From NCBI GenBank assembly GCA_021604005.1, contig BQIV01000003.1, forward strand, positions 62,001 to 126,000: a stretch of DNA of 64,000 nucleotides, read 5' to 3'. This DNA is from Nitrospirales bacterium. GTDB taxonomy: Bacteria > Nitrospirota > Nitrospiria > Nitrospirales > UBA8639. The notes under the pieces were generated by a model, which was not told the origin of the DNA, searched no databases, and saw nothing but the letters and a program-made list of their open reading frames with translations. The position numbers and the translations under genes were made by a program. This document shows positions 23,406 through 40,681 of this stretch, piece after piece (positions within the stretch are counted from its first letter, which is position 1; each line of letters opens with the position of its first letter).

Positions 23406-23457
23406 TGTCCCCAATCGAGTCACTTTTTCCTTGTTGATGTTGTGACGGAATAGGTCA
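23406..23457 (+). promoter_or_regulatory. Tandem 17-bp activator-like boxes, module D
   Basis: TGTCCCCAATCGAGTCA (23406-23422) and TGTGACGGAATAGGTCA (23441-23457) start 35 bp apart. Both fit the consensus TGTSNCNAAWNNRGTCA shared with the modules at 26.7, 32.8 and 40.5 kb. They lie 72 bp from the divergent receptor gene, so they could also influence that operon. Confidence 0.65.
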
Positions 23458-23502
23458 GTGATGAATGGCAGGGATTGTTCGTTTGTCATTTTTTGTTAAA
23501 AA

Positions 23503-23515
23503 AATCACATACTTG
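23503..23515 (+). promoter_or_regulatory. IHF-like site, module D
   Basis: AATCACATACTTG has one mismatch to WATCAANNNNTTR and follows an A-tract. It starts 51 bp before the -24 GG. Confidence 0.4.
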
Positions 23516-23551
23516 CCTTCATGATTCTTTACGGAAAACGTTCCGGTCTCC

Positions 23552-23569
23552 TGGGTATCATTGTTGCTA
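23552..23569 (+). promoter_or_regulatory. Sigma-54 promoter, module D
   Basis: TGGGTATCATTGTTGCTA has GG (23554-23555) and GC (23566-23567) exactly 10 bases apart, with a TTGCT core. It lies 65 bp before the start of the 48-residue acidic protein. Confidence 0.65.
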
Positions 23570-23620
23570 AGTTAGAAGATGTACGGGAAAAGGTAAACAC
23601 TTTAATTCGGGAGGTGTGTG

Positions 23621-23767
23621 ATGGAAATTGGCCCATTTAGCCTTGGATTTGGAACCTATTGTGTTTTGGCAAAAAATGAATGTGTGCGTTCTAAAACGTC
23701 TGAGGAGGAGGCCGATGATAGAGCCTCAGACATGTCTGGGGACAGTGAGAACGAGGATGATCAGTAG
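23621..23767 (+). CDS. 48-aa acidic small protein under a sigma-54 promoter
   Basis: Not recognised. An ATG with a strong GGGAGG ribosome site 6-7 bases upstream opens a 48-codon frame. A hydrophobic N-terminal third (MEIGPFSLGFGTYCVLAK) contains one of two Cys residues, and the C-terminal half is strongly acidic (SEEEADD, SENEDDQ). The signals in front of it, a sigma-54 promoter, IHF-like site and two activator-like boxes, make it a credible gene despite its size. A regulatory peptide or modified precursor are guesses only. Confidence 0.7.
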   Translation: MEIGPFSLGFGTYCVLAKNECVRSKTSEEEADDRASDMSGDSENEDDQ

Positions 23768-24042
23768 AGGCGTGACATAAAGTTTCTGAACGTTCGATGA
23801 GTGGACCAATGGTCAGCCATGAGCAGGTTGTGACTTTCTGTGCCATGAAGAAACGTGTGCAGTAACGGTCCTTTCAAAATATGTGGTTGAGTGCCATTGA
23901 TCCAATTGCTGTTCTTACGCGATATGATCGTTGTGACTCTTTCCCTTAGAGGGACTAGTGAACCAGGAGAGTGAGCAAGGTCTTGTTGGACGAGGCGATT
24001 GATCGTCGCGCCATCAGTCTGCCATGTGTCGTTGGCTTGCAT
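23761..24042 (-). CDS. Hypothetical protein, 93 aa
   Basis: A minus-strand ATG frame with AGGA about 7 bases upstream. The product (MQANDTWQTDGATINRL to FRNFMSRLY) is soluble-looking, has no recognised domain, and overlaps the 3' end of the acidic small gene by 7 bases on the opposite strand. It could be real but has no supporting neighbour or homologue that I recognise. Confidence 0.45.
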   Translation of the reverse strand: MQANDTWQTDGATINRLVQQDLAHSPGSLVPLRERVTTIISRKNSNWINGTQPHILKGPLLHTFLHGTESHNLLMADHWSTHRTFRNFMSRLY

Positions 24043-24108: not shown

Positions 24109-25308
24109 ATGCTGAACAACATGATGGAGGGCAGAGCGCAGCGGGCGCGTGTGAATTTTCGAGTGACTGTGGATCGATTATTGAGAGCCCATGCTCCTGA
24201 GCCGATGCACGGCCTCACAGAGACATTCTGTTCAAAGGTGCAATCTGCACCTGAAGGAACGGACTATTGGCAACAGCTTTGCGGTGAATGTGAAAGCCTC
24301 TCCCGTATTCCATATCGGCATGGAACATTGGCGCACGCTATCGAGTGGGAAGCGTTGAAACTTCAAGCACGGCTCGCGTCAGTGTCTGCGAATCACGAAC
24401 GGTTATCCGTTCCGTTGTTTCGGGAACGTCACGTACACATCGGGACACTCATCCGTTTGTGGCGACGACTCGCTCTCGAAACCGAACATGAGTTAGCCAA
24501 GCAAGGACATGATACGTTATTGGATGTAGGGCCGTGGGGAGGGTTTAATTTTGCTGTCCAAGAGGACGGGTTTACGCGGATGCCATTTGCCCGCTTGACG
24601 CTGGCGATTGGCAGCCTTCCACATACTCCAATCGATGAGCACGGTGGACCTTTCTACGACAGTTTCCTAGCCAGGTACATAGCCGCGCTCGAGTCCGCTG
24701 GAGTGACCATTCCCAATGAGTTCGCCTATCAACACCAGAGATATGACGAGTCCGGCCGCCTTACTGAAGTGTCCTGCACGTATCATTTTCCACACCATAC
24801 CTATGAACGGCGATTGTTTGTGAAGATCCGCCTTTCTCGGGCCTTTGAGACGGTCGAAGAAATTACCTTGCATGATTTTCTTGGATTGCTGGAACGCTTG
24901 CACTTCACCACCGATTGGGATGCGTATCGGGAGCAGACCCAGGACATCGATGCTCGATTCGATCTTCAAGATTTCATTTCGCTGAGTCATATTACGGAAG
25001 GTGTCTATCAACGTACGGTTGCTGAAGAAGATCTATTGGTGGAGATTAAAGATGCGTTTCGTGGAGCCATCCGGGAGCGAAAGGTGCTGTATGGGTACCT
25101 GGATTCCATAAAAAAAAGAAAATGGATTGAGAATCTCTATTGGGGAATTGCCGAGACCGCCTTAGGTATTCGGAAATATCAACGGCCGATTTCGTTGACC
25201 CGAGACGTGTGTACGCAGATGCCTCCACGACTGCTCATTCCCGTGAGGCGACACCTCCAGGACTATCATCAACGTCTTGATTCCGTCCCGGCATCCGCGT
25301 CTGATTGA
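24109..25308 (+). CDS. Conserved-looking protein of unknown function, 399 aa
   Basis: Not recognised. The ATG follows AAGGAAGAAC, a good ribosome site. The product is soluble, with no signal peptide or membrane span, and mixes helical Arg/Glu-rich and aromatic segments. The middle contains LLDVGPWGGFNFAVQEDGFTR; the C-terminal third has a basic stretch (GYLDSIKKRKWIENLYWG). The gene faces the methyltransferase gene, their stops 10 bp apart. Confidence 0.75.
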   Translation: MLNNMMEGRAQRARVNFRVTVDRLLRAHAPEPMHGLTETFCSKVQSAPEGTDYWQQLCGECESLSRIPYRHGTLAHAIEWEALKLQARLASVSANHERLSVPLFRERHVHIGTLIRLWRRLALETEHELAKQGHDTLLDVGPWGGFNFAVQEDGFTRMPFARLTLAIGSLPHTPIDEHGGPFYDSFLARYIAALESAGVTIPNEFAYQHQRYDESGRLTEVSCTYHFPHHTYERRLFVKIRLSRAFETVEEITLHDFLGLLERLHFTTDWDAYREQTQDIDARFDLQDFISLSHITEGVYQRTVAEEDLLVEIKDAFRGAIRERKVLYGYLDSIKKRKWIENLYWGIAETALGIRKYQRPISLTRDVCTQMPPRLLIPVRRHLQDYHQRLDSVPASASD

Positions 25309-25318
25309 GCGGCTCTTT

Positions 25319-26674: not shown

Positions 26675-26726
26675 TGTCTCAATTTAGATCACTCGTTCGT
26701 TGTATGCGGTGTGACGAAATAGGTCT
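26675..26726 (+). promoter_or_regulatory. Tandem 17-bp activator-like boxes, module A
   Basis: TGTCTCAATTTAGATCA (26675-26691, the weakest copy) and TGTGACGAAATAGGTCT (26710-26726) start 35 bp apart. The second box is nearly identical to those at 32832 and 40550. Confidence 0.65.
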
Positions 26727-26781
26727 GCGGGCTGCGGCCTCTCTTCACTCGTTACATTTCTTTTGCAGAATTCTTCACGAG

Positions 26782-26794
26782 AATCAATGTGTTT
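26782..26794 (+). promoter_or_regulatory. IHF-like site, module A
   Basis: AATCAATGTGTTT matches WATCAANNNNTT and differs only at the final R. It sits in a block (ATTTCTTTTGCnG...ATTCTTCACnAGAATCAA) nearly identical in modules B and C, and starts 52 bp before the -24 GG. Confidence 0.55.
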
Positions 26795-26830
26795 TCTTCA
26801 TTGCATGCATGATGGTTTGTCGTGATCGTT

Positions 26831-26849
26831 CACGGCATTCATGTTGCTA
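26831..26849 (+). promoter_or_regulatory. Sigma-54 promoter, module A
   Basis: The 19-mer CACGGCATTCATGTTGCTA, identical in modules B and C, has GG (26834-26835) and GC (26846-26847) with N10 spacing. It lies 133 bp upstream of the secreted-protein operon. Confidence 0.8.
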
Positions 26850-26981: not shown

Positions 26982-27695
26982 ATGAAAACCAGAATGTGGT
27001 TTATGGTTCCCTTAATCTTGGGAGTATTGTTTGGCTGTACAGAGAAACAGCTTGGACAGATTTCTCATCTTGTGAATACCCACGTTACGGAGAAACAACC
27101 TGGGGGAAATTCCAATCTTGAGAAAGCCCACGTCGTCACTCAGGGAACACACACAACATTTTCAAACAGTGTTGCCCAAGAAATTGCGGCGCTCGATGAC
27201 TATTTTTCAACGCTTCAATATTCGATACAGGCGAGTGGCACATCTCTAAGCAAGAAAGACCAAAAGACCATGAAATCGGCAAAGACCGTCTCTCAAAAAG
27301 GGAAAACGTTACAAAAGAAGGGGAACTCCTACCACGCCCTTCAAAAAGTTCGGACTGCTAAACGGATGATGAAACCAATGATGAAGAAGCTTTGGACGCT
27401 TGGCGATAAAAGAGCGATTTTAGGTCTTGTGAACCAACAAATCGGCGTCGTAAAGCAGCGACATCGTGAGCTGGAAGACCTTGTCGCGCTGAGCAAGGTG
27501 AAATCCAGGAAGGCAATCAATGCTCAACATCGATCGAAAGAGTTGGTCAATGAGGCGAACATGCTTCGCAAGAATGGAAAGCTTCGTCGGGCCTATGTGC
27601 AAAGTGAAGAGGCATTGAAGGCATTAGATATGGCCATCGCCGTCGTTTGGCGTGACCGCAATAGTGTAACCAAATCCCAACCTACAAGGAGGTAA
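26982..27695 (+). CDS. Lipoprotein with helical Lys-rich body
   Basis: First gene of the sigma-54-linked secreted operon. The signal sequence ends in lipobox LFGC (Cys19), so the protein should be lipid-anchored. A 16-residue tandem duplication follows (TEKQLGQISHLVNTHV then TEKQPGGNSNLEKAHV). The rest is helical and strongly basic (QKGKTLQKKGNSYHALQKVRTAK, ALDMAIAV), about 237 aa in all. No family recognised. AAGGAG precedes the ATG, and the next gene starts 3 bp after the stop. Confidence 0.82.
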   Translation: MKTRMWFMVPLILGVLFGCTEKQLGQISHLVNTHVTEKQPGGNSNLEKAHVVTQGTHTTFSNSVAQEIAALDDYFSTLQYSIQASGTSLSKKDQKTMKSAKTVSQKGKTLQKKGNSYHALQKVRTAKRMMKPMMKKLWTLGDKRAILGLVNQQIGVVKQRHRELEDLVALSKVKSRKAINAQHRSKELVNEANMLRKNGKLRRAYVQSEEALKALDMAIAVVWRDRNSVTKSQPTRR

Positions 27696-27698
27696 ATC

Positions 27699-28037
27699 AT
27701 GAAAACTCACACACTTATTCTCGGTCTTGTTGCCTGTGCTGTTTTGTCAGGAAATGGCGTCGTGTTTGCTCAAGAATCTGAGAGCGGCTTCCAGGAGCGA
27801 GGCTCTGGGAAGTTAAAGAAAATGGATGCCGATCGTGACGGGAACATTTCGTTAGACGAGTACTTAGCTATGGCCGAACACCGATTTGGGCAAATGGATG
27901 CCAATACGGACGGATATGTCACGGCGGACGAACTGAAAAACGGACGAAAAGCGGTGCGTGCCAAGAGTCGTGAGCGACGTGGAAAACGTCAAGCAGGCAA
28001 GATACAGAATAAGGCAGTAGACGGTGAGATGCCGTGA
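27699..28037 (+). CDS. Secreted EF-hand protein
   Basis: A 112-residue exported protein. The signal peptide (LVACAVLSGNGVVFA|QE) precedes two canonical EF-hand loops, DADRDGNISLDE (about 44-55) and DANTDGYVTADE (about 67-78), and a basic tail (RAKSRERRGKRQ). It should bind calcium outside the cytoplasm. AAGGAGG precedes the ATG, and it is tightly coupled to the lipoprotein gene. Confidence 0.9.
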   Translation: MKTHTLILGLVACAVLSGNGVVFAQESESGFQERGSGKLKKMDADRDGNISLDEYLAMAEHRFGQMDANTDGYVTADELKNGRKAVRAKSRERRGKRQAGKIQNKAVDGEMP

Positions 28038-28112
28038 CAAGAAACGTAGTTTTGCATTTGCAGTACATAGTGGACTTGTCACGGTTTTAAGGAAGAAATA
28101 GGAGAATTGGTT

Positions 28113-28658
28113 ATGCGATCTATATTGAAAACTGGCGTGCTGATGCTCTGTCTTAGTGTTGTGTTTCTTTTTCCGCTGACAGGGTTTTCACAAGATTCGT
28201 TCTCTCAAGAACAGGCCGATAGAGAGACTAAGCGCTGTGCTGATTCCCGCGACGGGTGCCTTGGAGCAGCGGCTGGTTTTGGAGTAGGGATTGTCGGACA
28301 ACTCAAGCCTTGTAAGGCGCTCCGTGAATGTAAAAAAGAATGCCGGACAGAAAAGCGCGATTGCAAGAAAGACGCTCGAAGTGACAAGAAAGACTGTAAG
28401 CAAGACTGTAAGGACCGCTTGGGGAGTGGCAAAGCATTCCGTGATTGTAAAAAAAGTTGCAGGGAGGATAAGAGAGACACCAAGAAAGACTGCCGGGAAG
28501 AAAAGCGGGAGTGTAAAAATATTTGCCGCGGAACGTTTAAGACTCCTGAATGCAAACGAGCTAAGAAGGTGGCCAATAGTTCTGCTGTAGTGGGAGTCCC
28601 AGCTTGTGCCGCCTTTGTTGCATGTATTTCACAAAGTCAAAAGAGCGACACGCAGTAA
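28113..28658 (+). CDS. Secreted Cys/Lys/Asp-rich repeat protein
   Basis: Not recognised. A signal peptide (LSVVFLFPLTGFS|QD) is followed by a core of two similar units of about 32 residues: one beginning ALRECKKECRTEKRDCKKD and one beginning AFRDCKKSCREDKRDTKKD. Cys spaced CxxxC alternates with long Lys/Arg/Asp/Glu runs, suggesting disulfide-linked charged helices. The ATG at 28113 is chosen over a TTG at 28107 because GGAG lies 8 bases upstream. The DsbA-like protein two positions later fits its need for disulfides. Confidence 0.8.
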   Translation: MRSILKTGVLMLCLSVVFLFPLTGFSQDSFSQEQADRETKRCADSRDGCLGAAAGFGVGIVGQLKPCKALRECKKECRTEKRDCKKDARSDKKDCKQDCKDRLGSGKAFRDCKKSCREDKRDTKKDCREEKRECKNICRGTFKTPECKRAKKVANSSAVVGVPACAAFVACISQSQKSDTQ

Positions 28659-28681
28659 TTTGTAGATTATTAAGAGAGTGA

Positions 28682-28713
28682 GGCACGGCCTCGTATCCAC
28701 GGGGCCGTGTGCC
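28682..28713 (+). terminator. GC-rich stem-loop inside the secreted operon
   Basis: GGCACGGCC pairs with GGCCGTGTGCC (one bulge) around a 12-base loop. No T-run follows, so it is more likely an attenuator or mRNA-stability element than a full terminator. Confidence 0.35.
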
Positions 28714-28819
28714 AATGCAAATAGGCATCGCTTCAAAGGGGGCGTCAATGTAATGGAATGGGCTGCATAAGTTAAGCAGCAGCAAAAGAGAAATTCTAGA
28801 AACAGGGAGGGATAGCAAT

Positions 28820-29668
28820 ATGAAACTCAAATTACTTTCTATGATAGGGGCGTTTTTCTGGATTCTTTCCATAAGCATTTCTGGAGTCAATGCGCAAGTA
28901 ATAACATCTGTCTCAGACAAGGAGACCTTGAAAGCTGAGTTGACAGCGGTGGTGAAATCCGTGCTTCGAGAACATCCAGAAGTAATTCTTGAAGCATTGG
29001 AGGAAAAGCCAGTCGCATTGGCGAATCTTGTTCAACAAGCAGCGATAGAAAAAGCCGTGAGGGTCAAGGAAGAGCAGCGTCGAACTGAGCTGAAGAATCC
29101 AAAGGTGGCAGATATTGATGTGGAGCGTCCAATTCGTGGGAATCCACAGGCATCCATCACCATCGTGGAATACAGCGACTTTGAATGTCCGTTTTGTGGT
29201 TCGGCGTCTTCTACGGTCAAACAAGTTTTGGAACAGTATGGAGAAGATGTTCGCTTTGTATACAAGCATAACCCGTTAAATTTTCATCCAATGGCTGAGC
29301 CTGCTGCCAGATATTTTGAGGCGATTGCCATGCAAGATGTAGAGGAGGCTTGGCGTTTTCATGACTTGGTTTTTGAACAACAGGAACTGCTTACCGATGG
29401 AGAACCTGTTTTGAAAGCCATCGTGGCGTCATTGAATATCGATGAACAGAAATTAGAACAAGACCTCAAAGGCGACACAGTTGAGCAGCGTCTCTACCTC
29501 GATCGAGAAGAGGCCGCCAGATTTGGTTTTGATGGAACGCCAGCATTCTTGATTAATGGTGTGTCCTTGATGGGGAGTCAACCAATGGAAGATTTCCAAG
29601 AGATTATTCAGATGTTCATGTCAGAAAAACATCACAATAATCGCCTCGCGGCTTCGAATGGTTCTTAG
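28820..29668 (+). CDS. Secreted DsbA-like thiol oxidoreductase
   Basis: A signal peptide is followed by a helical region (about 30-95) and a thioredoxin-fold DsbA domain with active site CPFC in YSDFECPFCGSAS (near residue 120), helical insert, and cis-Pro loop DGTPAFLING. It resembles the DsbA/Com1 family with an N-terminal dimerisation-like extension. It probably forms or isomerises disulfides in the Cys-rich neighbours of the same operon. That link is inferred from context. Strong ribosome site GGGAGGG. Confidence 0.92.
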   Translation: MKLKLLSMIGAFFWILSISISGVNAQVITSVSDKETLKAELTAVVKSVLREHPEVILEALEEKPVALANLVQQAAIEKAVRVKEEQRRTELKNPKVADIDVERPIRGNPQASITIVEYSDFECPFCGSASSTVKQVLEQYGEDVRFVYKHNPLNFHPMAEPAARYFEAIAMQDVEEAWRFHDLVFEQQELLTDGEPVLKAIVASLNIDEQKLEQDLKGDTVEQRLYLDREEAARFGFDGTPAFLINGVSLMGSQPMEDFQEIIQMFMSEKHHNNRLAASNGS

Positions 29669-29713
29669 AATCCGTGGCTCAATTTCTAGATCATTTGTAT
29701 TAGGAGAAAACTC

Positions 29714-30682
29714 ATGAAAAAAATAATTCTTATCCTACTGCTTATCCTCCTAGTTACGCCCGTGCATGCAAAAAAGTTTAAAGTGAAAAATTGCGACTCG
29801 TCTTCTATGGCTGACATCAATTGGGCCGTTGATTTTATCGACAACAATATTGATGAAATGCTAGCCGAGGCGACATTTATCCCAGGTAAATACAAGGATA
29901 AGATTAAGAAGAAATGGCCTTCTACAACCCTTAAATGTTCGAAAAAGAAAAAGTGCAGTGGTGATACTATGGGATATCACAAAAAAGGAAGTGGGAATAA
30001 GTTCAATCTCTGCTGGGATCAAATACGAGATTTTAATCAGACTCGCTGTGAGTTAGTCGGGATTCTCATGCATGAAAAGGCTCACGCGGCCAATGTTCCA
30101 ATTGAAAAAAAACATAATGATATGAACGCATACTCCTATGTGAGCAATGTGGACTTGGTATATCGCTTTGATGATGTTGTGGAGAACGTTTGTACGAGGA
30201 AGTCTGACCCAAACTATGTGCCAACGGGTGCGACCAAGACTGGGGGAGATATCGTTGAGTCTGGACGAGCCGGCAAGCTTGCATTGGATCAGCTCTGCTC
30301 GGAGCATACGCAATGTGCTTCCAGTAAATGCGGAAAAGGAAGGTGCGTGTGTGACGATAACAACGATTGTGGTAGCAAGTCACGGTGCATCAAGAAGATT
30401 GGCAAGAATTATTGTGTTCCGACCGGAGGAATAATCGGTGATTTTTGCAAGAAAAATTCTGACTGTGGCATCGGTAAATGTGAAAAGAAAAGTTGTGTCT
30501 GTAAAAAAGACACGGACTGCCGAACTAGTTTTGGTTCGACCAATTTTAGGTGTGCAAAGCCTGGTCTCGGTTTTGGAAAGAATTTTTGCCAACCAACTTC
30601 TGTATCGAACGGAGGTGCCTGCGCAAAAAACTCAGACTGTAATAGTGGTAAATGTAAGAAGAAGAAATGCGTGAGCAAGTAA
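29714..30682 (+). CDS. Secreted HExxH protein with Cys-rich repeats (paralogue 1)
   Basis: After a signal peptide ending near VHAKKF, the N-terminal domain (about 25-170) contains MHEKAHAANVP, an HExxH zinc motif, followed by KKHNDMNAYSY, in the spacing expected for a zincin with a downstream His or Asp ligand as in aspzincins. The C-terminal half holds three repeats of the form CxxxSDC...KCxxxxCVC. It is paralogous to the protein at 31501: both share KYKDKxKKKWPxTTLKCSK. Metallopeptidase activity is inferred, not shown. TAGGAG precedes the ATG. Confidence 0.8.
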   Translation: MKKIILILLLILLVTPVHAKKFKVKNCDSSSMADINWAVDFIDNNIDEMLAEATFIPGKYKDKIKKKWPSTTLKCSKKKKCSGDTMGYHKKGSGNKFNLCWDQIRDFNQTRCELVGILMHEKAHAANVPIEKKHNDMNAYSYVSNVDLVYRFDDVVENVCTRKSDPNYVPTGATKTGGDIVESGRAGKLALDQLCSEHTQCASSKCGKGRCVCDDNNDCGSKSRCIKKIGKNYCVPTGGIIGDFCKKNSDCGIGKCEKKSCVCKKDTDCRTSFGSTNFRCAKPGLGFGKNFCQPTSVSNGGACAKNSDCNSGKCKKKKCVSK

Positions 30683-30764
30683 TGAGCAACAAACAGGTAA
30701 GAGAGCCTTAGCTATCAATCTAAAAATCCGAAGCAATACGGATTGAATTCAAGGAGAAACCATC

Positions 30765-31214
30765 ATGAAACGGACGATATTAATAGGCGTGGTGTTTATA
30801 GTAGGTCTTTCAATGGCAGTGATTCAGAACGTCGATGCTCAGACAATGTGTCAGGGACAGGCCGCGACGATTGTTGGCAATGACTTTGATAATGTTCTTA
30901 TTGGAACTCCAGGCAACGATGTGATTCATGGTCTTGGAGGAAACGATATCATCGAAGGTAGAAATGGAAATGATATTATTTGCGGTGGCGAAGGTGCCGA
31001 CAGTATCTTTGGTGACCGTGGTGATGATGCGATCAGAGGCGGGCCTGGGAACGATAACCTTAGAGGGAATGCTGGCACGGACAATATTAATGGAGGAGAT
31101 GGAAACGATATTCTTCGGGGAGGGGCTGGCCCAGATTTACTTGATGGTGGCAATGGTCGTGATGACTGCAACCGGGGCACTGGGAACAATCCTGCGGCAC
31201 TGAACTGTGAGTAG
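30765..31214 (+). CDS. Secreted RTX/hemolysin-type calcium-binding repeat protein
   Basis: A 149-residue protein with an N-terminal Sec signal (GVVFIVGLSMAVIQNVDAQ) and about nine GGxGxDxhx nonapeptides from GNDFDNVLIGTPGND to GGNGRDD, which fold into a calcium-bound beta-roll. RTX proteins usually leave by type I secretion; here a Sec signal is present and no type I exporter is adjacent. A Cys-containing tail (CNRGTGNNPAALNCE) could form one disulfide. Confidence 0.92.
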   Translation: MKRTILIGVVFIVGLSMAVIQNVDAQTMCQGQAATIVGNDFDNVLIGTPGNDVIHGLGGNDIIEGRNGNDIICGGEGADSIFGDRGDDAIRGGPGNDNLRGNAGTDNINGGDGNDILRGGAGPDLLDGGNGRDDCNRGTGNNPAALNCE

Positions 31215-31373
31215 TGAAGGGTGCATATTGTGTAGAGCTAGTAGGTACAAGAACGGAGGGCTGGTCTTTAATGAAATGTTCTCTTCACATTGTCTGCAAC
31301 ATATTTGGGAGTCAATTCGAGCATGGAACAGGCTAGTGAATACATTTATAGACTGTGTGTTATGGAATAACAA

Positions 31374-31402
31374 CTGACAAAGCGATTTATCGATACTATA
31401 AG
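31374..31402 (+). promoter_or_regulatory. Candidate internal sigma-70 promoter
   Basis: CTGACA, 17 bases, TATAAG, about 100 bp before the second HExxH gene in a 286-bp gap. It could allow expression of that gene independent of the upstream sigma-54 promoter. Confidence 0.5.
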
Positions 31403-31500
31403 AGCATGTCTGAATGGGGGCGAGGCTGAAGGAGCCAAAATTAATCAGCAAGACTCTCACGAATGATGGCTCATTTGTCGAAAGTTAAGGAGAATATGTG

Positions 31501-32472
31501 ATGAATCCCAAAATACTTCTTACGAAATGCGTTATAGCACTGATGATCATGTGTTTAAGCGCTCCTGTTATTGCCGCAGACAAAATTAAGAATTGTTCAG
31601 AAAAAGAAGACAAGACAGCGTTGGAAAATGCTAATAGGTTCATCACTGAGCATTTGGATAACTTCCTTGCAACGAGTGCGTCCTTTTTGGCAACGAAATA
31701 TAAGGATAAGATGAAGAAGAAATGGCCAAAGACAACACTGAAATGTTCGAAGAGAGATAAATATTGTGAGCGCAGGGATTTCCAAGCGTTTCAGGGTTCT
31801 AGTAATACGATTAAATACTGTACTGAAGTGTTTGATCTTTCCTGGGCAGAACTTTGCACCACTGTGGGCCTTACTGTGCATGAGTTAGGTCATGTGGCAA
31901 ATATTCCCATTCATGCTCGCCATGATCATGCGGACCTGTATGCTAAAACAATTAGCTCTGGAAAAGCTGATCTGGTTTGGAGACTAGAAAAAGAGATGAA
32001 GTCCTACTGTTGGGAAACGATTAATACGGGATCGAGCCCGAGTGTTGCTCCAGTGAGCAGTGGTGAAATTGGAACGAAATGTAAGAAGAATTCGGACTGC
32101 AACTCAAAAAAATGCCAAGGCAAAGGTGCCGTGCGCGAATGTGTTTGCGCAGATAATGATGACTGTGACGGGAGTGCTCGTTGCAAAAAGCGTTTAGGAA
32201 AGAATTACTGTATCGCAAAGGGAACGGGGCCTGGGGATTTTTGTAAAAAGAATAGGGATTGCGATATTGGAGTTTGTCAGAAGAAAAGTTGTGTGTGTAA
32301 AACCGATAAGGATTGCAAAAGTTTTTATTCCAACATAAGTGACATTCGATGCGTCAATCGGGTGGGGAAGAATTTTTGTCAAGAGACGAAACAGGATGCA
32401 GGCGAATCATGTCATAAAAATTCTGATTGTACCGGCAACTTAAAATGTAAAAAGAAAGCGTGTAGTAGTTAG
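31501..32472 (+). CDS. Secreted HExxH protein with Cys-rich repeats (paralogue 2)
   Basis: 323 residues; the signal peptide ends near PVIAADK. The domain shared with the protein at 29714 includes KYKDKMKKKWPKTTLKCSK and the zinc motif VHELGHVANIP, followed by HARHDHADLYA with candidate third ligands. The C-terminal half repeats CKKNSDCNSKKC / CKKNRDCDIGVC / CHKNSDC units. The motif HELGH is a better zincin match than HEKAH in the paralogue. AAGGAG precedes the ATG at 31501; an in-frame GTG one codon earlier is less likely. Confidence 0.82.
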   Translation: MNPKILLTKCVIALMIMCLSAPVIAADKIKNCSEKEDKTALENANRFITEHLDNFLATSASFLATKYKDKMKKKWPKTTLKCSKRDKYCERRDFQAFQGSSNTIKYCTEVFDLSWAELCTTVGLTVHELGHVANIPIHARHDHADLYAKTISSGKADLVWRLEKEMKSYCWETINTGSSPSVAPVSSGEIGTKCKKNSDCNSKKCQGKGAVRECVCADNDDCDGSARCKKRLGKNYCIAKGTGPGDFCKKNRDCDIGVCQKKSCVCKTDKDCKSFYSNISDIRCVNRVGKNFCQETKQDAGESCHKNSDCTGNLKCKKKACSS

Positions 32473-32796: not shown

Positions 32797-32848
32797 TGTC
32801 TCACATTGAGTCACCTTCTGCTAGATGCCGCTGTAACGAAATAGGTCA
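32797..32848 (+). promoter_or_regulatory. Tandem 17-bp activator-like boxes, module B
   Basis: TGTCTCACATTGAGTCA (32797-32813, a near-palindrome) and TGTAACGAAATAGGTCA (32832-32848) start 35 bp apart. Confidence 0.7.
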
Positions 32849-32904
32849 GCAGAAGTTGGAAGTCTCTTTCCCGTTTCATTTCTTTTGCTGCAATTCTTCA
32901 CAAG

Positions 32905-32917
32905 AATCAACGTGTTC
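32905..32917 (+). promoter_or_regulatory. IHF-like site, module B
   Basis: AATCAACGTGTTC matches WATCAANNNNTT with a mismatch only at the last base. It is preceded by the small palindrome ATTCTTCACAAGAAT and starts 52 bp before the -24 GG. Confidence 0.55.
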
Positions 32918-32953
32918 ACATAATGGAATGCGTGACGGCCTGCCATGATTGGC

Positions 32954-32972
32954 CACGGCATTCATGTTGCTA
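32954..32972 (+). promoter_or_regulatory. Sigma-54 promoter, module B
   Basis: CACGGCATTCATGTTGCTA, identical to modules A and C. GG 32957-32958, GC 32969-32970. Confidence 0.8.
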
Positions 32973-33052: not shown

Positions 33053-33154
33053 TTGGATACTATTCATCACAAACAATCAACTACATTGAGACGTACATCG
33101 ACACAATTGCATATTGATGATGTGTGCATCGAAGAATTGAATAGGGGTGAATAA
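33053..33154 (+). CDS. 33-aa leader protein coupled to the giant gene
   Basis: A TTG start with AAGGAGG about 6 bases upstream opens a 33-codon frame (MDTIHHKQSTTLRRTSTQLH to EELNRGE) whose TAA overlaps the ATG of the 1018-aa gene as TAATG. The strong ribosome site and the stop-start overlap indicate translational coupling. The product is hydrophilic and unrecognised. It may be a genuine small protein or only a device to set translation of the downstream gene. Confidence 0.55.
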   Translation: MDTIHHKQSTTLRRTSTQLHIDDVCIEELNRGE

Positions 33155-36100
33155 TGGCTAAGCAGAAACAAACGAATCTCACAGTGTCTCGTGTCCTGTT
33201 AGAGTCCCTGGTGCCGAGAAAAATGCCAGTTAATGAAGAATACCAATTGGTTCGTCCCGATGATCAACTTCATCTGCGCTTCCAATTGATTAACGGTGAA
33301 GTCGATCGAAGCAGCAATACTATCGTCGGCCTCAAAGGCGAGGAACCCATCTATTATGCAATCTGGCTAGGTCCTCAACATCGAGTGGAAGCGCCGATTA
33401 CTCCTGGCGGCATGCCCAAAGATTTTGCCGGTGCTAGTCGCATTGCCGGGGAGTCTAGGATTGTGGTTGAAATTCCGAACGGGACGCCTTTTACCGTTGC
33501 GACACTGCTGGATCTGGCTGCGTATGCGTTAGTTTTGGATGATCGTGCCTTGCCCGAGGCTAAGCCAAATGATCTGGAGCCGGATGCCTCAGTGACGGCC
33601 ATTGAAGTGCCCACTTCTCTGGTTCTTTCCCCAACCACGGGCAATCGATTTGTTGCCGGAACCCAGGCAATCACCCATGGTGATGTCACTGAGTTGTGGC
33701 GTGCCCGCCTGGGTCGTGTTGTGGGCAACAGGGTCATTGAACCACCGCGACGGGAGGTGAAGGCGCGAGCCATCTGGCAGCGGCCAGAGGATCCGGGATT
33801 TGTTCCGCCGCGACCTCTTGACCATGATGACCGGAGATTGCTGGTGGAGCAAACCACTGGTGAAAAATCCCAGCCCATTTCAGTCAAGCAATTGTGGTTA
33901 TCCTCCCAAGGCGCTTTTTTCGATGCCGAAGGGGAATGGGCCGAAGGTACACTGACTGCTTATCGGCAGCGAGTTATCACCGGACGAGATTTGCATGTGG
34001 AAGTCGTTAAGCGCGGTTATCTCACGCCCTTTGGTCACCCAGCCAGTATTACGACACTGACAGAGAGGCAGTTTCTTAAAGATGAATCCGGTGAAACGAC
34101 GGCTGTTCTGATTTCGGAAGATTTTCTCACTATCGGCGCTGGAGAGGTTTGCCTGGATTCTGATTCAATCCCATTTATTCCCTACCAGGGCAGGGGCACT
34201 CCTTTTGTGAAAGTAACCGCCTCTGACTCCGGTTCTGGTGAGATAGGTGCACGGCAGGTTGTATTAGCTAACGGCGCTAACATTACAATTGATAAGGGCT
34301 ACGTACTTACCCGCGGCGGTGAGGATCTGCGTATCGCCTTCAGCGCTACTGACCGCAGTGGACAGGAAGGTATCTGCTTCGAAATGCCCACAGTCTTTAT
34401 TACCGAAGATGTAGCCTACCAGTCTGGCAAAAAAACCGCGTTGAATAAATTAAACAAGTGGTTTGACGAAAGGGGAAACCAGGATTTCGTCACTGCTGGG
34501 CTGAACTCTCAACCCATTGCTTGGGCCGACCCTCCCGAGGGGAGTATTAGCAACCGTGCCGGCTCGGTGCAAACGACCACCAGTATTTGCTTTGGCCTAG
34601 ACTTGCCGGGTTTACACACAAACGATCCCGTCGATGTAGAAGCTGAACTTGAAGCCAGTGGCCGCCCTGCCTTTTATCCGGCCGTGCGCAGCGCTCGAAT
34701 TGTAGATTTGGCTGTTAGTACAAATTACGGCGGTGCCTCACCTGAATTAGAAGTCAATATTGCTCAGCGCTATCTTGAGCATGGTTCCGGAGACAACAAT
34801 ATCGATCTTGGTTATCTTGATTTGCCAACCCCTAATGTCGTGATACCAACGACAGAAGCGACGGGCATGATGTCTCTGGGGCTGAAGGTCGCGACCTTCG
34901 GCCAGCGAACAGGCGGTGGTATCGATTTCTCCGGTGGCACCTGGGATCCTGCAGATGCACTGGCGGAGCTGTTTGACGGGTTTCCCAAACTGCTGGGAGC
35001 CATTAACCTAGCCGACATTATCAGCAGCATCGAAGATCTCAGCTTGGACTTGTCAGACCGTGGGCTACCCACCATGTCGGTCGAGCCGATTGTTACCGAC
35101 AATGGTATCCCTAGCGGAGCCTGTTTCCATTTTCAGTGGGAGCCGGAAATACATTCTTTTCCTAAAGAAGGAGACAAAACCTTTGTGGTCACCGCCGACT
35201 TTGGCGGCGGGGAAGAAGAAAATGATGAGGATAAGATGTCGGAGATTCCGGCCAACTCGTTCGGGGTTCGCGAAACCCGGGCGCTGTTAGATATCCGTAC
35301 TTGCACCGATGGCACCCAGACATTTGAAGTGTCACTGGAACGCTTTGCTCTGCTCGTGCCGCCGAAGATACCGGTTGTGGCGTTGTTGTTTGAACGTTTG
35401 CGTTACCGCAATGTGCAGAACAACGGGTCAGCTACCGCAGATATTAGTGATTGGTTTTTCATTAACCAGCTCGGCTGGCTGGAACCAGTGAAGGACTTGT
35501 TGCTGGATGTGCTGGGTTTGGGCACCCCGATGTTTGAAGGCGGTATCTTTATAGACTTTGATTTGCCGCTACCAGGCTTAACGCTTGGAGTTGTGGGTAT
35601 CCACGGCATTCAGTTGGGATTGGACATCAATATGCCAGACAGTGGCGCAAGTTCACTCGGGTTCGCCCTTTCATCTCAAGAAGACCCCTTCATTGTCACC
35701 ATTATGGGTTTTGGTGGTAATGGGTCGTTTTCGTTGGCGCTGGACTCTAAAAAAATCGTGTACGTCAAAGGCAGCACAGCCGTGATGTTTGAACTTGCTG
35801 TTAATGTCTTTGTGGTCTCGGCGGCGGTTTCAGTCTCGTTGGGCACATTCATTATATATGAAGTCAACAAGCAGGACCAAGGGGAAGTCACGCTGGGTGC
35901 CTATGCGACGGTGGCTGGCGCTATTTCTATTATTGGTCTGGTAAAAATTTCCGGAGCCGTGACTGTCGCCCTTATTTACAACGTCACCACCAAAGTCTTA
36001 CGCGGTGTGGCTTCGGTAACCGGCGAGGTGAGTGCGGTGGTATTCAAAGGCACAGCCACCCACGATGTAGAGGTCAAGGTCGCACTGGGGGACGATTCAA

Positions 36101-36210
36101 ACAAGGCTAGGCGCTTGGCGGCATCGGCTGGTAGCGACAACTCAGCCTCATTCGGTGATCGCTACTCCTCTCCTCAATGGGATCAATACTGTAAAGCGTT
36201 TGCGGATTAA
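33154..36210 (+). CDS. Giant protein of unknown function, 1018 aa
   Basis: Not recognised. There is no signal peptide. The first two-thirds look beta-rich with many short charged loops (QLVRPDDQLHLRFQL, SVQTTTSICFGLDLPG, GGGEEENDEDK). Residues about 780-960 are hydrophobic and Gly-rich (LTLGVVGIHGIQLGLDINMP, VFVVSAAVSVSLGTFIIYEV, ISIIGLVKISGAVTVALIY), possibly a membrane-interacting or pore-like beta/hairpin region. Its coding sequence looks more GC-rich than the secreted operon upstream. It is followed 19 bp later by a second giant gene, so the pair probably works together. Confidence 0.8.
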   Translation: MAKQKQTNLTVSRVLLESLVPRKMPVNEEYQLVRPDDQLHLRFQLINGEVDRSSNTIVGLKGEEPIYYAIWLGPQHRVEAPITPGGMPKDFAGASRIAGESRIVVEIPNGTPFTVATLLDLAAYALVLDDRALPEAKPNDLEPDASVTAIEVPTSLVLSPTTGNRFVAGTQAITHGDVTELWRARLGRVVGNRVIEPPRREVKARAIWQRPEDPGFVPPRPLDHDDRRLLVEQTTGEKSQPISVKQLWLSSQGAFFDAEGEWAEGTLTAYRQRVITGRDLHVEVVKRGYLTPFGHPASITTLTERQFLKDESGETTAVLISEDFLTIGAGEVCLDSDSIPFIPYQGRGTPFVKVTASDSGSGEIGARQVVLANGANITIDKGYVLTRGGEDLRIAFSATDRSGQEGICFEMPTVFITEDVAYQSGKKTALNKLNKWFDERGNQDFVTAGLNSQPIAWADPPEGSISNRAGSVQTTTSICFGLDLPGLHTNDPVDVEAELEASGRPAFYPAVRSARIVDLAVSTNYGGASPELEVNIAQRYLEHGSGDNNIDLGYLDLPTPNVVIPTTEATGMMSLGLKVATFGQRTGGGIDFSGGTWDPADALAELFDGFPKLLGAINLADIISSIEDLSLDLSDRGLPTMSVEPIVTDNGIPSGACFHFQWEPEIHSFPKEGDKTFVVTADFGGGEEENDEDKMSEIPANSFGVRETRALLDIRTCTDGTQTFEVSLERFALLVPPKIPVVALLFERLRYRNVQNNGSATADISDWFFINQLGWLEPVKDLLLDVLGLGTPMFEGGIFIDFDLPLPGLTLGVVGIHGIQLGLDINMPDSGASSLGFALSSQEDPFIVTIMGFGGNGSFSLALDSKKIVYVKGSTAVMFELAVNVFVVSAAVSVSLGTFIIYEVNKQDQGEVTLGAYATVAGAISIIGLVKISGAVTVALIYNVTTKVLRGVASVTGEVSAVVFKGTATHDVEVKVALGDDSNKARRLAASAGSDNSASFGDRYSSPQWDQYCKAFAD

Positions 36211-36229
36211 AGAATCAACGGAGGATCCA

Positions 36230-39200
36230 ATGCCAGAACAACATCTCTTACCTGTGGCCCTACCCCGAGGTCGAGGACTGAACGAAGAGGGGCAGAACAT
36301 TGGAAAGATTACAATATATTTTTCACCTCGTCTAAAAGACGAAGATGTGCTCTTAAATTATCCAGAATGGCTGAATTGGCCGGAAATGCTTGATCGCATG
36401 AATGTCCGTTTGCGATTGATGGATAGCGGCAATTCTGAATGGGTGAGTTTGACGCGAGTTAGTGACGAGCCCGATCCAAACAAGTGGGAAAACTTGTTCG
36501 CAGCGAGCACGCCGGTTGAACCCCACCGCTTTGTGGATTGGTCTGCGGCGCCGTTGCAAACTGTGGCAAGCAGCGATTTTGATGAAGCTATTTTGGATAT
36601 GTATACGCGTATAGCAGTCGCTCACCCTAGTCAGCCACCGTCGGATGTTGATGTGTTTTCCATCCCTCAAGCACGTCAACTCACTCGTGCCGTCGAGCAG
36701 GCTATAGATTATCTGCAGCCCATGCACAGTGAAGAAACTGAACGGAAGGGAGAGGTCGCTGACCCGGAGTGGGATTTTCATGCCTATGTCTCACTTTTGG
36801 GCGGTCATCCAGAATTGTTACGGCATCTAGGGATCGCGGTGGATTATGAGTTTGTCTTTCCCGATACCGTGAAAGTACCCACGGCCGTTGCGGTTCAGAC
36901 GACCTATCCAGACAGGGTGATGAACGGGCCAGGCAGAGAAATCCGACTGATGACCAAGACCACCGATGCATTCTTTGCCGAACCGAATCCGGTTGCAGAT
37001 TTTCACGAACAGTCAGAAGGGTTTCTGGAGCTGCGTAATCAGAAAGCTTATCTATCCATATTGGATTCCTATTCAACGGCTACCCGACTGACGGACCTGG
37101 ATGGTCAGCAGGGCCAAATCGAAGAATCGGTTCCGGCGTTGATCACCAGAGCGTTGACCTTGGTCCGACCAGACCTTGTGAAGACATTCGAAAATCGCAC
37201 CGCCAGACAGGCTCAGATTGAGAAAGAAATCGGTACCCAGCTGGATCCTAACACACCGCCCAAAGATCGACAGCCGGTGGTGTTGTATGCTGAGGATGTT
37301 ACGATAGGACATCGGATAGATGTCTTGCGAAAAGAATCCTCAGGCTTCCAGTGGCGTAGCCTGTTCGATCGAAAAACCGATGCCAACGGCTACCAATTTA
37401 CTCGCGTTATCGATGGATCCTTGAATGTCCACCCGGATCCGGATGAAGGTTGGGCCCAAACCCTGTTGGTGACAGAATTGGAAGAAGATTTGTCTTCACA
37501 GATTAATAAAGACGACAAAGAGGTGCCACTTATACCCTATGCCTTACGGCGTCTTGATGATCAGCTGTATCGCTGGGATGGTTGGAGCGGTGCAGTCAGA
37601 CGACCGGGCTGCGTTCTGAATGGTGTGAAAGGAAGTGCCACCGACGTAGAACCGCAACTGCCGGTCAATGACACGGATGTGGTGCAATTCGCCGCGAACT
37701 ATGAGGTCGTGCCGTGCACTCTCCCGCAGCTTCGCTTCGGAGATGCCTACATCATGCGGGCTCGCTGCGTCGATCTGGCAGGGAACTCAGTTGGTCTCGA
37801 CGCGGTCAGTCCTGAAAAAACTGAAACAGATCCAAAGACCTTTGGACGTCTGGAACCAATTGCCGCACCGTTTATTGTACGACGCTCAGAACGTCCCATC
37901 CCAGGGGTGGGCGATGACGCGCTCACGGTCGTTCTCTTGGGTGATTATGACATTGACGACAAGACCGTAAAAGGCCAGGAGCGTCTGTTGTTTCCTCCAC
38001 GGGTTGGGCAGGATTTGTGCGAACTGCACGGAGAACCAGCCGGAGGAGTAGAACCAGCCAGCTATGATGAGTTGAAACGTCGCGATGCCAGGGAACCTGA
38101 GGATCATTGGAACGTTGATCCCGTAACGAGTGAACCGATTGCCCAAGGCGACGAGCATCAAGTCATCGAGTATTTATCAGATCCCCTGGTGGGCAATCTT
38201 CACTGTTATCGTTGGGGCCCCAAGGGTGGTGAATATGTGGCGGACATGACTGGTGCCTGGCCTTCCACCGAGTCGGCCCGTATTGAAGTGATCGCTGGTG
38301 ATCCAGATACCCTAGTGAATCCAGATTCGACGACTGAGTTTCGATTCACCATATCCAAGGCCGACATTGTGGCTGTGGATTTCAGCTATGCACCAAGGCA
38401 TGGCAGTGCGGATGAATTCGGCCTATGGCATCGAGCCAGCCCGGAAGAGCAGGACGACTTGCGCCCGATTATTGAGCGTGGAGGCCACTGGATGTTCTCA
38501 GCCCGTCGACCAGTGAAGATGGTTTACGCGGTGCGCCGACCATTGCTTGCACCGGATTTTGAGGACGACGATGGGACGCCTGTACCCAATCGAAGTGTAG
38601 ATGATACCGGGGTCGAATTCGGAGCTACGTTCATAATTGATCGAAGATCTACCAGTTCGGTGACCTTGCGCGCCAGCTGGACTGATTTGATTGATGATGT
38701 CCGTCTGGACGCGCCCGCAACCGTTTCAGGAGGTGCCCGGCTTGGTCGCTTCGAGACACTTCGAAAGGCTGACTCGGAATGCCTCACATACACTATAGCC
38801 AACCACCGGGCTGAATTAGGAGACACCAGGCGTCATTATGCCCGTCTGCATCTTGAAGCCTTTAGTTATTTCAGCAGTTACTTTACCGAAGAACGGGTCG
38901 TGCGAATGGTTGGCGACGCTGTCATGATTGATGAGCGGGGCCTGGCCGATGGGACGGTCACGGTACGTCACGGGAAAGAGAACCTTGAGGCGGAACTTGG
39001 CAAAGACTTTGAAGTGCTGGGTTCTAAAGGCATGATCAAAACCATTCGTGGTGGGGCCATTAAACATGGCGACCAGCTGACCGTGCGTTATATTCCATTG
39101 CCTATTAGTCGCACCAATGAAAAGCTTCCGGCTGTTTATGTCATCTTTCCAAACACGGCAACACCTCCACCGCCTCAGATTGATTCTGTCATTCCAGCGG

Positions 39201-40006
39201 CAGCCCGGGATGTGCAAGAACATTCAATCAGCCACGATGGTCGTCTGCTGCGTGTCTATTTACAACGGCCGTGGCATGTGTCCGGAGATGGCGAATCTCT
39301 GGCCGTATTGATCGAACGGAATCCCATCGGTGTTTCCAACGCTAGCCGATTGGGACGAGATCCTGCCGTCACCAATGCCAATATTCTTCAGACCTTGGCC
39401 CCTTCGGCTTTTCCACGGGTTCATTCTGTTGTGGAGAACTACGATGGCAGCCACGACCTGGCACTTCATAAGGTAGAGTACGATGCTGTCAGTAAACGCT
39501 GGTTTGCTGACATTGCGGTGGCGACTGAACTCTATCGGCCGTTTGTGCAACTCGTGGTTGCTAGGTATCAGCCAGATTCGATCACTGGGAAACACCTGAG
39601 TCCCTCAGTCACTCTAGAGCCATTTAGGTTAGGCGTTTCCCGTCAGGTCGAATTGCAGCAAAATAATGATGGGTTCAACATCACTGTTACAGGTCGTGAA
39701 CATGCCGGGATTCCCGTCCTGGAGAAACCTCAAGGGCAGAATGAAGTAGCCGTGACCGTACAAGAGGCAGACCCTGATCTTGCTGATCAAGACCTGCGTT
39801 GGATTACGGCAATCAACACGGCCACACTTGCTCGCGTTGCTGGACCAGACGGAAGCAGTTGGAGCGGGCAGTTGTCAATTAACAATTCCACAAGACCACA
39901 GCGTTTATTGATTGAGGAGTCTGAGCCGGCCTTGTTTGGTGGCGAGAAGCCGAGTCTGACCAGTCATGTGGTTTATTCTGAAGTGATGGTATTGCCGAAA
40001 AGTTAA
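36230..40006 (+). CDS. Giant protein of unknown function, 1258 aa
   Basis: Not recognised. The ATG at 36230 follows CGGAGGATCCA, a strong ribosome site 19 bp after the previous stop; a longer frame to 36155 overlaps that gene and is rejected. The protein lacks a signal peptide, is acidic, and reads as a chain of beta-sandwich-like segments with Pro-rich joints (FPNTATPPPPQIDSVIP), including CVDLAGNSVGLDAVSPEK, a phrase typical of Ig-like or fibronectin-like domains. No catalytic motif was seen. It may be a structural or scaffold partner of the 1018-aa protein. Confidence 0.8.
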   Translation: MPEQHLLPVALPRGRGLNEEGQNIGKITIYFSPRLKDEDVLLNYPEWLNWPEMLDRMNVRLRLMDSGNSEWVSLTRVSDEPDPNKWENLFAASTPVEPHRFVDWSAAPLQTVASSDFDEAILDMYTRIAVAHPSQPPSDVDVFSIPQARQLTRAVEQAIDYLQPMHSEETERKGEVADPEWDFHAYVSLLGGHPELLRHLGIAVDYEFVFPDTVKVPTAVAVQTTYPDRVMNGPGREIRLMTKTTDAFFAEPNPVADFHEQSEGFLELRNQKAYLSILDSYSTATRLTDLDGQQGQIEESVPALITRALTLVRPDLVKTFENRTARQAQIEKEIGTQLDPNTPPKDRQPVVLYAEDVTIGHRIDVLRKESSGFQWRSLFDRKTDANGYQFTRVIDGSLNVHPDPDEGWAQTLLVTELEEDLSSQINKDDKEVPLIPYALRRLDDQLYRWDGWSGAVRRPGCVLNGVKGSATDVEPQLPVNDTDVVQFAANYEVVPCTLPQLRFGDAYIMRARCVDLAGNSVGLDAVSPEKTETDPKTFGRLEPIAAPFIVRRSERPIPGVGDDALTVVLLGDYDIDDKTVKGQERLLFPPRVGQDLCELHGEPAGGVEPASYDELKRRDAREPEDHWNVDPVTSEPIAQGDEHQVIEYLSDPLVGNLHCYRWGPKGGEYVADMTGAWPSTESARIEVIAGDPDTLVNPDSTTEFRFTISKADIVAVDFSYAPRHGSADEFGLWHRASPEEQDDLRPIIERGGHWMFSARRPVKMVYAVRRPLLAPDFEDDDGTPVPNRSVDDTGVEFGATFIIDRRSTSSVTLRASWTDLIDDVRLDAPATVSGGARLGRFETLRKADSECLTYTIANHRAELGDTRRHYARLHLEAFSYFSSYFTEERVVRMVGDAVMIDERGLADGTVTVRHGKENLEAELGKDFEVLGSKGMIKTIRGGAIKHGDQLTVRYIPLPISRTNEKLPAVYVIFPNTATPPPPQIDSVIPAAARDVQEHSISHDGRLLRVYLQRPWHVSGDGESLAVLIERNPIGVSNASRLGRDPAVTNANILQTLAPSAFPRVHSVVENYDGSHDLALHKVEYDAVSKRWFADIAVATELYRPFVQLVVARYQPDSITGKHLSPSVTLEPFRLGVSRQVELQQNNDGFNITVTGREHAGIPVLEKPQGQNEVAVTVQEADPDLADQDLRWITAINTATLARVAGPDGSSWSGQLSINNSTRPQRLLIEESEPALFGGEKPSLTSHVVYSEVMVLPKS

Positions 40007-40514
40007 ATAATGTCTAATCGAAAAGTGATTGTTCTACTAATCAGGAATTCATAATAAGGTTAGAGAGCGTTGATTTCAGTGCTGTCATTCATAAGATGAA
40101 ATGCCCGATGATTGCTTAGTTTGTCGCTGGCAATAGCAAAGGCACGATTGGGAAAGATGTCTTCATGTTTATTGTTGTTGACAAAGCTTACTGTGGTCGT
40201 ACTGGTATGGATGTATTTAATTGTCTTAGGAGAGAGTAGAGTACTGGTGCTTCCGTATCGACCAGATTTGGCACCTACTCCTATAACCTGCGTGGCTATT
40301 TATACGGGAGAGCTCTGACTAATTAACGAACCTATAACTGTACCTAACAATTTACAATTGCGGATGTAACACATGCGGCGATTGGCAATGACATGTATGT
40401 GGCTGCATTATTCGTATGTATTTTCTCTGCCTGCAAATATATTTCTTGTTCAACTGACAAAGATCATTTCATATCTGACCTCATGAATCCTCTGGCCATC
40501 TCAAGATCTCCCAC
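40007..40514. other. Intergenic region with possible decayed coding remnants
   Basis: Three broken plus-strand stretches read as protein-like fragments (GTIGKDVFMFIVVDKAYCG near 40.14 kb, STRFGTYSYNLRGYLYGRAL near 40.26 kb, TIADVTHAAIGNDMYVAALF near 40.36 kb), each ended by stops and in different frames. They suggest a degraded gene but cannot be joined confidently. Confidence 0.25.
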
Positions 40515-40566
40515 TGTCTCCAATTGAGTCACTTCCTGATGGATGCTGCTGTGACGAAATAGGTCT
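40515..40566 (+). promoter_or_regulatory. Tandem 17-bp activator-like boxes, module C
   Basis: TGTCTCCAATTGAGTCA (40515-40531) and TGTGACGAAATAGGTCT (40550-40566) start 35 bp apart. Confidence 0.7.
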
Positions 40567-40622
40567 GCAGACCGCTCCGTTTCTTACCCTATTTTATTTC
40601 TTTTGCTGCGATTCTTCACAAG

Positions 40623-40635
40623 AATCAACGTGTTC
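40623..40635 (+). promoter_or_regulatory. IHF-like site, module C
   Basis: AATCAACGTGTTC, preceded by the perfect palindrome GATTCTTCACAAGAATC. It starts 43 bp before the -24 GG. Confidence 0.55.
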
Positions 40636-40662
40636 ACCATCATGGATAGCATCACGTTTGAT

Positions 40663-40681
40663 CACGGCATTCATGTTGCTA
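40663..40681 (+). promoter_or_regulatory. Sigma-54 promoter, module C
   Basis: CACGGCATTCATGTTGCTA, identical to modules A and B. GG 40666-40667, GC 40678-40679. The leader to the next recognised gene is about 245 bp and includes a 25-codon ATG frame (MANGKVAVSASYFMMGSLCP...) without a clear ribosome site. Confidence 0.8.

What the first reader, a model, noticed from the sequence alone, without database searches (positions are those of the whole stretch)
23406..40681. A four-copy sigma-54 regulatory module: two 35-bp-spaced activator boxes, an IHF-like site and a -24/-12 promoter
Seen directly: modules D (23406-23569), A (26675-26849), B (32797-32972) and C (40515-40681) each have two 17-bp boxes whose starts are exactly 35 bp apart in all four copies, an IHF-like site starting 43-52 bp before the -24 element, and a promoter with exact GG-N10-GC spacing. 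Three promoters share the identical 19-mer CACGGCATTCATGTTGCTA. The two boxes fit one consensus, TGTSNCNAAWNNRGTCA. The distance from box 2 to the -24 GG is 113-125 bp. Sigma-54 promoters with upstream activator sites and an IHF bend are a well-known architecture. The inference is a coordinated, apparently undescribed regulon for secreted proteins in this organism.
Basis: partly seen in the sequence, partly recalled or inferred. Interest (0 to 1): 0.93.

Follow-up and report, generated by a model that had tools for sequence, protein, structure and literature searches.

The report
Local sigma-54 regulon beside its activator
Four matching gene switches in a Nitrospira-type bacterium share one layout that recurs in close relatives, twice right beside the same regulator gene, so they probably form one small, newly noticed control circuit built on a well-known plan.

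Summary
Modules D, A, B and C each carry two 17-bp boxes exactly 35 bp apart, an IHF-like site and a GG-N10-GC promoter. The box pair occurs four times in the 4.7-Mb genome, all in this window. Modules of the same layout occur in 3 of 4 other genomes of the genus, eight in all; no comparable match appeared in 43 genomes of other genera. A scan of the 84,980-species collection returned only three copies already known. Boxes (82%) and promoter (87%) are conserved; box spacer (46%) and downstream DNA (32%) are not. rpoN is present.

New here: a likely activator. The NtrC-type response regulator at 16200-17621 has orthologs in two relatives (76%, 72%), and in both a complete module lies directly downstream. 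Downstream genes partly change between genomes.

The architecture is textbook sigma-54. The closest precedent is the PrsR/PEP-CTERM motif; this regulator misses the PrsR cut-off. Verdict: a real, genus-restricted new member of a known kind. "Secreted proteins" fits A and most of C, not B or D. No expression data were available.

The parts
16200..17621 (+). Probable activator: response regulator with receiver, sigma-54 AAA+ and Fis-type HTH domains
   Evidence: Pfam; receiver Asp/Thr/Lys, Walker A and GAFTGA kept in three orthologs; module directly downstream of it in G001 and G002
23406..23457 (+). Module D: box 1 (23406-23422) and box 2 (23441-23457)
23503..23515 (+). Module D IHF-like site
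   Evidence: one mismatch, 51 bp before GG
23554..23567 (+). Module D -24/-12 promoter, GG-N10-GC
23622..23767 (+). 48-aa ORF behind D
   Evidence: homologous ORF (61% over 36 aa) at the matching place behind the G002 module
26675..26726 (+). Module A: box 1 (26675-26691) and box 2 (26710-26726)
26782..26794 (+). Module A IHF-like site
   Evidence: one mismatch, 52 bp before GG
26834..26847 (+). Module A -24/-12 promoter
26982..32472 (+). Seven ORFs behind A (possible operon or operons): lipoprotein-like, EF-hand, Cys-rich, DsbA/ScsC-like, two Cys-rich proteins with HExxH, RTX-repeat protein
   Evidence: transcript limits not known
32797..32848 (+). Module B: box 1 (32797-32813) and box 2 (32832-32848)
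32905..32917 (+). Module B IHF-like site
   Evidence: one mismatch, 52 bp before GG
32957..32970 (+). Module B -24/-12 promoter
33154..40006 (+). Two large overlapping ORFs (1018 and 1283 aa) behind B, no Pfam family
40515..40566 (+). Module C: box 1 (40515-40531) and box 2 (40550-40566)
40623..40635 (+). Module C IHF-like site
   Evidence: one mismatch, 43 bp before GG
40666..40679 (+). Module C -24/-12 promoter
40927..45986 (+). ORFs behind C (40927, 41920, 43392, 44388, 45351); how many belong to its transcript is not known
   Evidence: 40927 homologs in G001, G002 and G003, not G004

Best explanation
The four modules are sigma-54 (RpoN) promoters of one small, clustered regulon. The response regulator encoded at 16200-17621, once phosphorylated, binds the two boxes as dimers that assemble into the active AAA+ oligomer. 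A bend between boxes and promoter, probably made by IHF or a relative of it, lets the oligomer touch RNA polymerase with sigma-54 held at GG-N10-GC, and ATP hydrolysis opens the promoter. Shown by sequence: the layout, its conservation in four genomes, its restriction to one genus in the collections searched, the presence of rpoN, the intact domains of the regulator, and a module directly downstream of the regulator gene in two relatives. Inferred: that this regulator is the protein that binds, that IHF is the bending protein, what the signal is, and how far each transcript runs.
For: Layout 8 of 8, box spacing 35 bp in 8 of 8, box2-to-GG 113-125 bp. Conservation limited to elements: boxes 82%, promoter 87%, spacer 46%, downstream 32%; the linker peaks at -64 to -41 where the IHF-like site lies. 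Four sites in the genome and 0 control hits in 48 genomes. A profile of the eight finds them at 47.5-58.4 bits and nothing else above 16.7 bits in 48 genomes (the eight match by construction). rpoN once; three HU/IHF-family genes. Regulator: receiver, sigma-54 AAA+ and HTH domains, GAFTGA and a closely similar HTH in the three orthologs, and module 103 bp (G001) and 161 bp (G002) behind its gene. D and the G002 copy are both followed by homologous 48-aa ORFs.
Against: No transcript or binding data. The regulator-box pairing rests on synteny in two relatives; G003 has a module but no ortholog above 51% was found (86% complete assembly). Here 5.8 kb and three genes on the other strand lie between regulator and D. 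The genome has many related activators: 95 matches to this protein, including receiver-only ones. The IHF consensus is weak in the four modules of relatives, and a one-mismatch match anywhere in the linker is not rare. No conserved partner kinase was identified.
Confidence: 0.75

Rival explanations
1. The promoters are real sigma-54 promoters, but another enhancer-binding protein encoded elsewhere binds the boxes; the regulator at 16200 is a neighbour by chance.
For: Many related activators in the genome (95 matches including receiver-only ones); a module without a found ortholog in G003; regulator and D are 5.8 kb apart here.
Against: A module directly downstream of the ortholog in both other genomes that have one; sites in this genome confined to the same region; 50-52% sister regulators have no such module (up to 5 mismatches) in the 7 flanking loci examined.
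Confidence: 0.18
2. The modules are duplicated intergenic repeats or mobile-element ends without regulatory function.
For: A, B and C are alike beyond the core elements, so duplication in this genome is likely.
Against: Box spacer and downstream DNA have diverged while boxes and promoter have not; all eight lie between genes ahead of a gene on the same strand; none in IMG/VR; four copies in the genome, in one cluster.
Confidence: 0.03
3. This is the known PrsR/PEP-CTERM-box system in another phylum.
For: Same logic: a 17-nt activator motif, sometimes repeated, before a -24/-12 motif upstream of exported-protein genes (PMC1569441 passages). TIGR02915 is the second-best NCBIfam match of the regulator.
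Against: 411 bits against the TIGR02915 cut-off of 502.6, 399 and 407 bits for the two orthologs. No PEP-CTERM match in the downstream proteins scanned. PEP-CTERM motif 1 ends in TTTACA with a mean 63-nt spacer; here the boxes end differently and box 2 ends 96-108 bp before GG.
Confidence: 0.03

Closest known systems
PrsK/PrsR sigma-54 control of PEP-CTERM genes (PMC1569441, PMC9850573; passages seen)
   Same: NtrC-type response regulator, 17-nt activator motif sometimes repeated, -24/-12 promoter, targets largely exported proteins, pairing inferred by comparing genomes
   Different: Regulator below the PrsR cut-off, no PEP-CTERM match in scanned targets, different motif, always two boxes 35 bp apart, longer distance to the promoter, clustered and confined to one genus
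General sigma-54 promoters with tandem activator sites and IHF (introduction of PMC6296734, passages)
   Same: Tandem upstream sites, a bend site between, GG-N10-GC promoter
   Different: Box sequence, 35-bp register and genus-restricted regulon; CbrB itself uses non-palindromic subsites
Sigma-54 regulators beside nxr genes in Nitrospira moscoviensis (PMC6606698, passages)
   Same: Sigma-54-dependent regulators encoded beside genes they may control, in the same wider group
   Different: The genes there are nitrite oxidoreductase genes; the passages seen describe no promoter module
AtoC and NtrC families (NF008469, TIGR01818)
   Same: Same domain order; best-scoring NCBIfam models (429 and 411 bits)
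   Different: Far below their cut-offs of 714 and 558.6 bits

Membership tests
Sigma-54-dependent promoter | GG-N10-GC at -24/-12 | tested here: met
   4 of 4 here, 8 of 8 overall
Sigma-54-dependent promoter | rpoN gene in the genome | tested here: met
   one PF04963 match, 217.5 bits
Sigma-54-dependent promoter | Upstream activator sites | tested here: met
   two boxes 35 bp apart, 8 of 8; sequence only
Sigma-54-dependent promoter | IHF bend site between activator sites and promoter (common, not universal) | tested here: inconclusive
   one mismatch in A-D, 2-3 at that position in relatives; HU/IHF-family genes present, IHF not told apart from HU
Sigma-54-dependent promoter | Transcription start about 11-13 nt after GC and dependence on rpoN | not testable with these tools
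   no expression data
NtrC-family enhancer-binding protein (16200-17621) | Receiver, sigma-54 AAA+ with GAFTGA, Fis-type HTH | tested here: met
   Pfam PF00072, PF00158, PF02954; GAFTGA in the alignment
NtrC-family enhancer-binding protein (16200-17621) | Binds these boxes | not testable with these tools
   synteny only
PrsR / PEP-CTERM box regulon | Score above the TIGR02915 cut-off | tested here: not met
   411 of 502.6 bits; orthologs 399 and 407
PrsR / PEP-CTERM box regulon | PEP-CTERM domain in the regulated proteins | tested here: not met
   no such match in the downstream proteins scanned
PrsR / PEP-CTERM box regulon | Motif 1 ending TTTACA, spacer mean 63 nt | tested here: not met

The most novel reading that the evidence does not exclude
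A genus-private sigma-54 circuit in which the promoter module is the stable unit: it stays beside its activator and is reused by duplication, while part of the gene content under it is exchanged (AdoMet decarboxylase, subtilase, weakly EamA-like protein, large proteins of no known family). The 48-aa peptide encoded right behind the activator-proximal module in two genomes could be a feedback or secreted signal of the circuit.
Probability: 0.15. Interest if true: 0.6.

Novelty: new member of a known kind. Interest (0 to 1): 0.42.

Why it matters
It gives this group of Nitrospirales, whose genomes encode many sigma-54 activators, a concrete regulator, site and target set that can be tested directly. 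It offers a handle on a cluster of exported Cys-rich, DsbA-like, putative peptidase and calcium-binding proteins and on two large proteins of no known family. It also shows an activator being paired with its sites by genome comparison alone.

Tried and rejected
Mobile repeat: rejected, since conservation is confined to the elements and IMG/VR has no match to the box pattern. PrsR/PEP-CTERM membership: rejected on cut-off, absent domain and motif layout. Histidine kinase 17852-20113 as a conserved partner: not supported, as it is not among the homologs in the G001 and G002 stretches fetched; its presence elsewhere in those genomes was not searched. Sister regulators (50-52% identical): no two-box module with up to 5 mismatches in the 7 flanking loci examined. 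Whether the 40927 homologs of G002 and G003 sit behind a module could not be tested, because their contigs end upstream of or inside the gene. Sigma-70-like promoters were not in excess (9 against 13.6 and 8 against 9.7 expected) and terminator-like sites were within about 1.5 standard deviations (12 against 8.9 and 9 against 5.8), so transcript limits stay open. PADLOC search of six downstream proteins and PDB sequence search of two found nothing. A first eight-row box alignment had G002b on the wrong strand and was dropped (redone).

Full report
Observation. Reading the four stretches and aligning them confirms the coordinates of the finding. The boxes start 35 bp apart in all four, the promoters have GG-N10-GC, A, B and C share the 19-mer, and an IHF-like site with one mismatch starts 51, 52, 52 and 43 bp before GG in D, A, B and C. 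The two-box pattern with up to three mismatches has 4 matches in the 4,705,129-bp genome, all in this window, and 0 for the reversed pattern.

Spread. In 48 genomes of the family the same search hits 3, all of the window's genus, and the reversed control hits none of the 48. G001 was missed there because its copy has 4 mismatches; it was found by reading the DNA behind its regulator ortholog. That makes eight modules: four here, two in G002, one in G003, one in G001. G004 (99% complete) has none. That scan needs exact matches, may leave out the window's own genome, and did not return G001. IMG/VR gave 0. A sequence profile built from the eight finds them at 47.5-58.4 bits (E of 6e-12 or better) and nothing else above 16.7 bits (E 0.018) in 48 genomes; the eight match by construction, and stricter filters that lose some weak matches were used.

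Constraint. Mean pairwise identity over the eight is 82% in the boxes, 87% in the 16-base promoter, 46% in the 18-bp spacer and 32% in the 30 bp behind the promoter. Within the linker, identity peaks at -64 to -41 from GG (0.49-0.53 against 0.25-0.44 elsewhere), where the IHF-like site lies. Boxes 1 and 2 keep different sub-consensuses. Box 1 is a clear dyad (column-permutation p = 0.0012); box 2 is not at its centre (p = 0.36) and only weakly so one base further on. The 16-base promoter pattern, derived from the eight, has one further exact site in the five genus genomes. Box2-to-GG distances fall into 113-116 bp (two) and 122-125 bp (six), about one helical turn apart, which with eight related cases is only suggestive.

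Activator. At 16200-17621 lies a response regulator with a sigma-54 AAA+ domain and a Fis-type HTH. Its orthologs in G002 (76%) and G001 (72%) stand clear of the next relatives at 50-52%. In G001 and G002 a full module starts 103 and 161 bp behind the regulator gene. Here the nearest module, D, starts about 5.8 kb behind it, beyond a kinase, an ABC-type binding protein and a TonB receptor gene on the other strand. D and the G002 copy are both followed, 54-55 bp after the GC, by homologous 48-aa ORFs (61% over 36 aa), so D is the positional counterpart. The pairing rests on synteny: ortholog and module are both present in 3 of 5 genus genomes, a module alone in 1 (G003, 86% complete), and neither in 1 (G004). 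The genome has 95 matches to this protein, including receiver-only ones, so other activators cannot be excluded.

Targets. Behind A lie seven ORFs whose N-termini look by eye like export signals (no predictor was run): among them an EF-hand protein, a DsbA/ScsC-like protein, an RTX-repeat protein and two Cys-rich proteins with an HExxH motif. Behind B lie two large proteins with no Pfam family and no evident signal. Behind C the first three ORFs look exported, the fourth (44388) does not, and the fifth (45351) has a sub-cut-off Rce1-like match. Behind D is the 48-aa ORF. Homologs of 40927 occur in G001, G002 and G003 (cut by the contig end) but not G004. The metallopeptidase-like protein at 31498 has a full-length homolog in G001 only; four other genomes match only in its Cys-rich part. 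In G001 one module precedes an AdoMet decarboxylase gene and then, in the same direction, relatives of 40927, the DsbA-like protein, 31498 and 45351. The module on G002 contig 156 lies beside the same methyltransferase gene as A but leads into a different gene (201 aa, no Pfam match); the G003 module leads into a gene with nearly the same start and a weak, sub-cut-off EamA match. So 'regulon for secreted proteins' is fair for A and most of C, not for D and B.

Known or new. Tandem palindromic activator sites, an IHF bend and GG-N10-GC are the standard plan (PMC6296734, passages). The nearest precedent is the PrsR/PEP-CTERM motif (PMC1569441, passages), whose membership tests fail here. Library searches combining Nitrospira with sigma-54 or RpoN terms listed 1, 3 and 7 papers. 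A word search of three Nitrospirales genome papers found no 'sigma' in any of them and no 'RpoN' in the two where it was searched (PMC12342949, PMC10579370, PMC8115632). [quoted passage not shown] I found no description of this module in these searches; most subscription journals are not held.

Verdict. A real, conserved, genus-restricted sigma-54 regulon with a probable activator: a new member of a known kind.

Noticed in passing
L016, L018, L019, L020 and L021, 67-84 bp before the regulator match: In 5 of 7 sister-regulator loci (50-52% identical) a GG-N10-GC motif such as GGCGTATTTATTGCA lies just upstream of the gene, suggesting sigma-54 control of the sister regulator itself.
   Followed up: partly
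window 17852-23334: A kinase (HAMP, GAF, HisKA), an ABC-type substrate-binding protein and a TonB receptor gene on the minus strand lie between regulator and module D here, but not between regulator and module in G001 or G002.
   Followed up: partly
window 23622-23767: 48-aa ORF with a conserved N-terminal half (GPFSLGFGTYC) and a diverged acidic tail, found in 2 of 48 family genomes, no family match.
   Followed up: partly
window 29714-30682 and 31498-32472: Two related exported-looking proteins with HExxH and Cys-rich C-terminal stretches; no Pfam match above cut-off and, for the second, no PDB sequence match.
   Followed up: partly
window 33154-40006: Two large overlapping ORFs of no known family; for the first, only partial 24-33% matches in 3 other family genomes.
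   Followed up: partly
window 24109-26290: A 399-aa protein of no known family and a methyltransferase keep their arrangement next to each other in G002 and G003.
   Followed up: no
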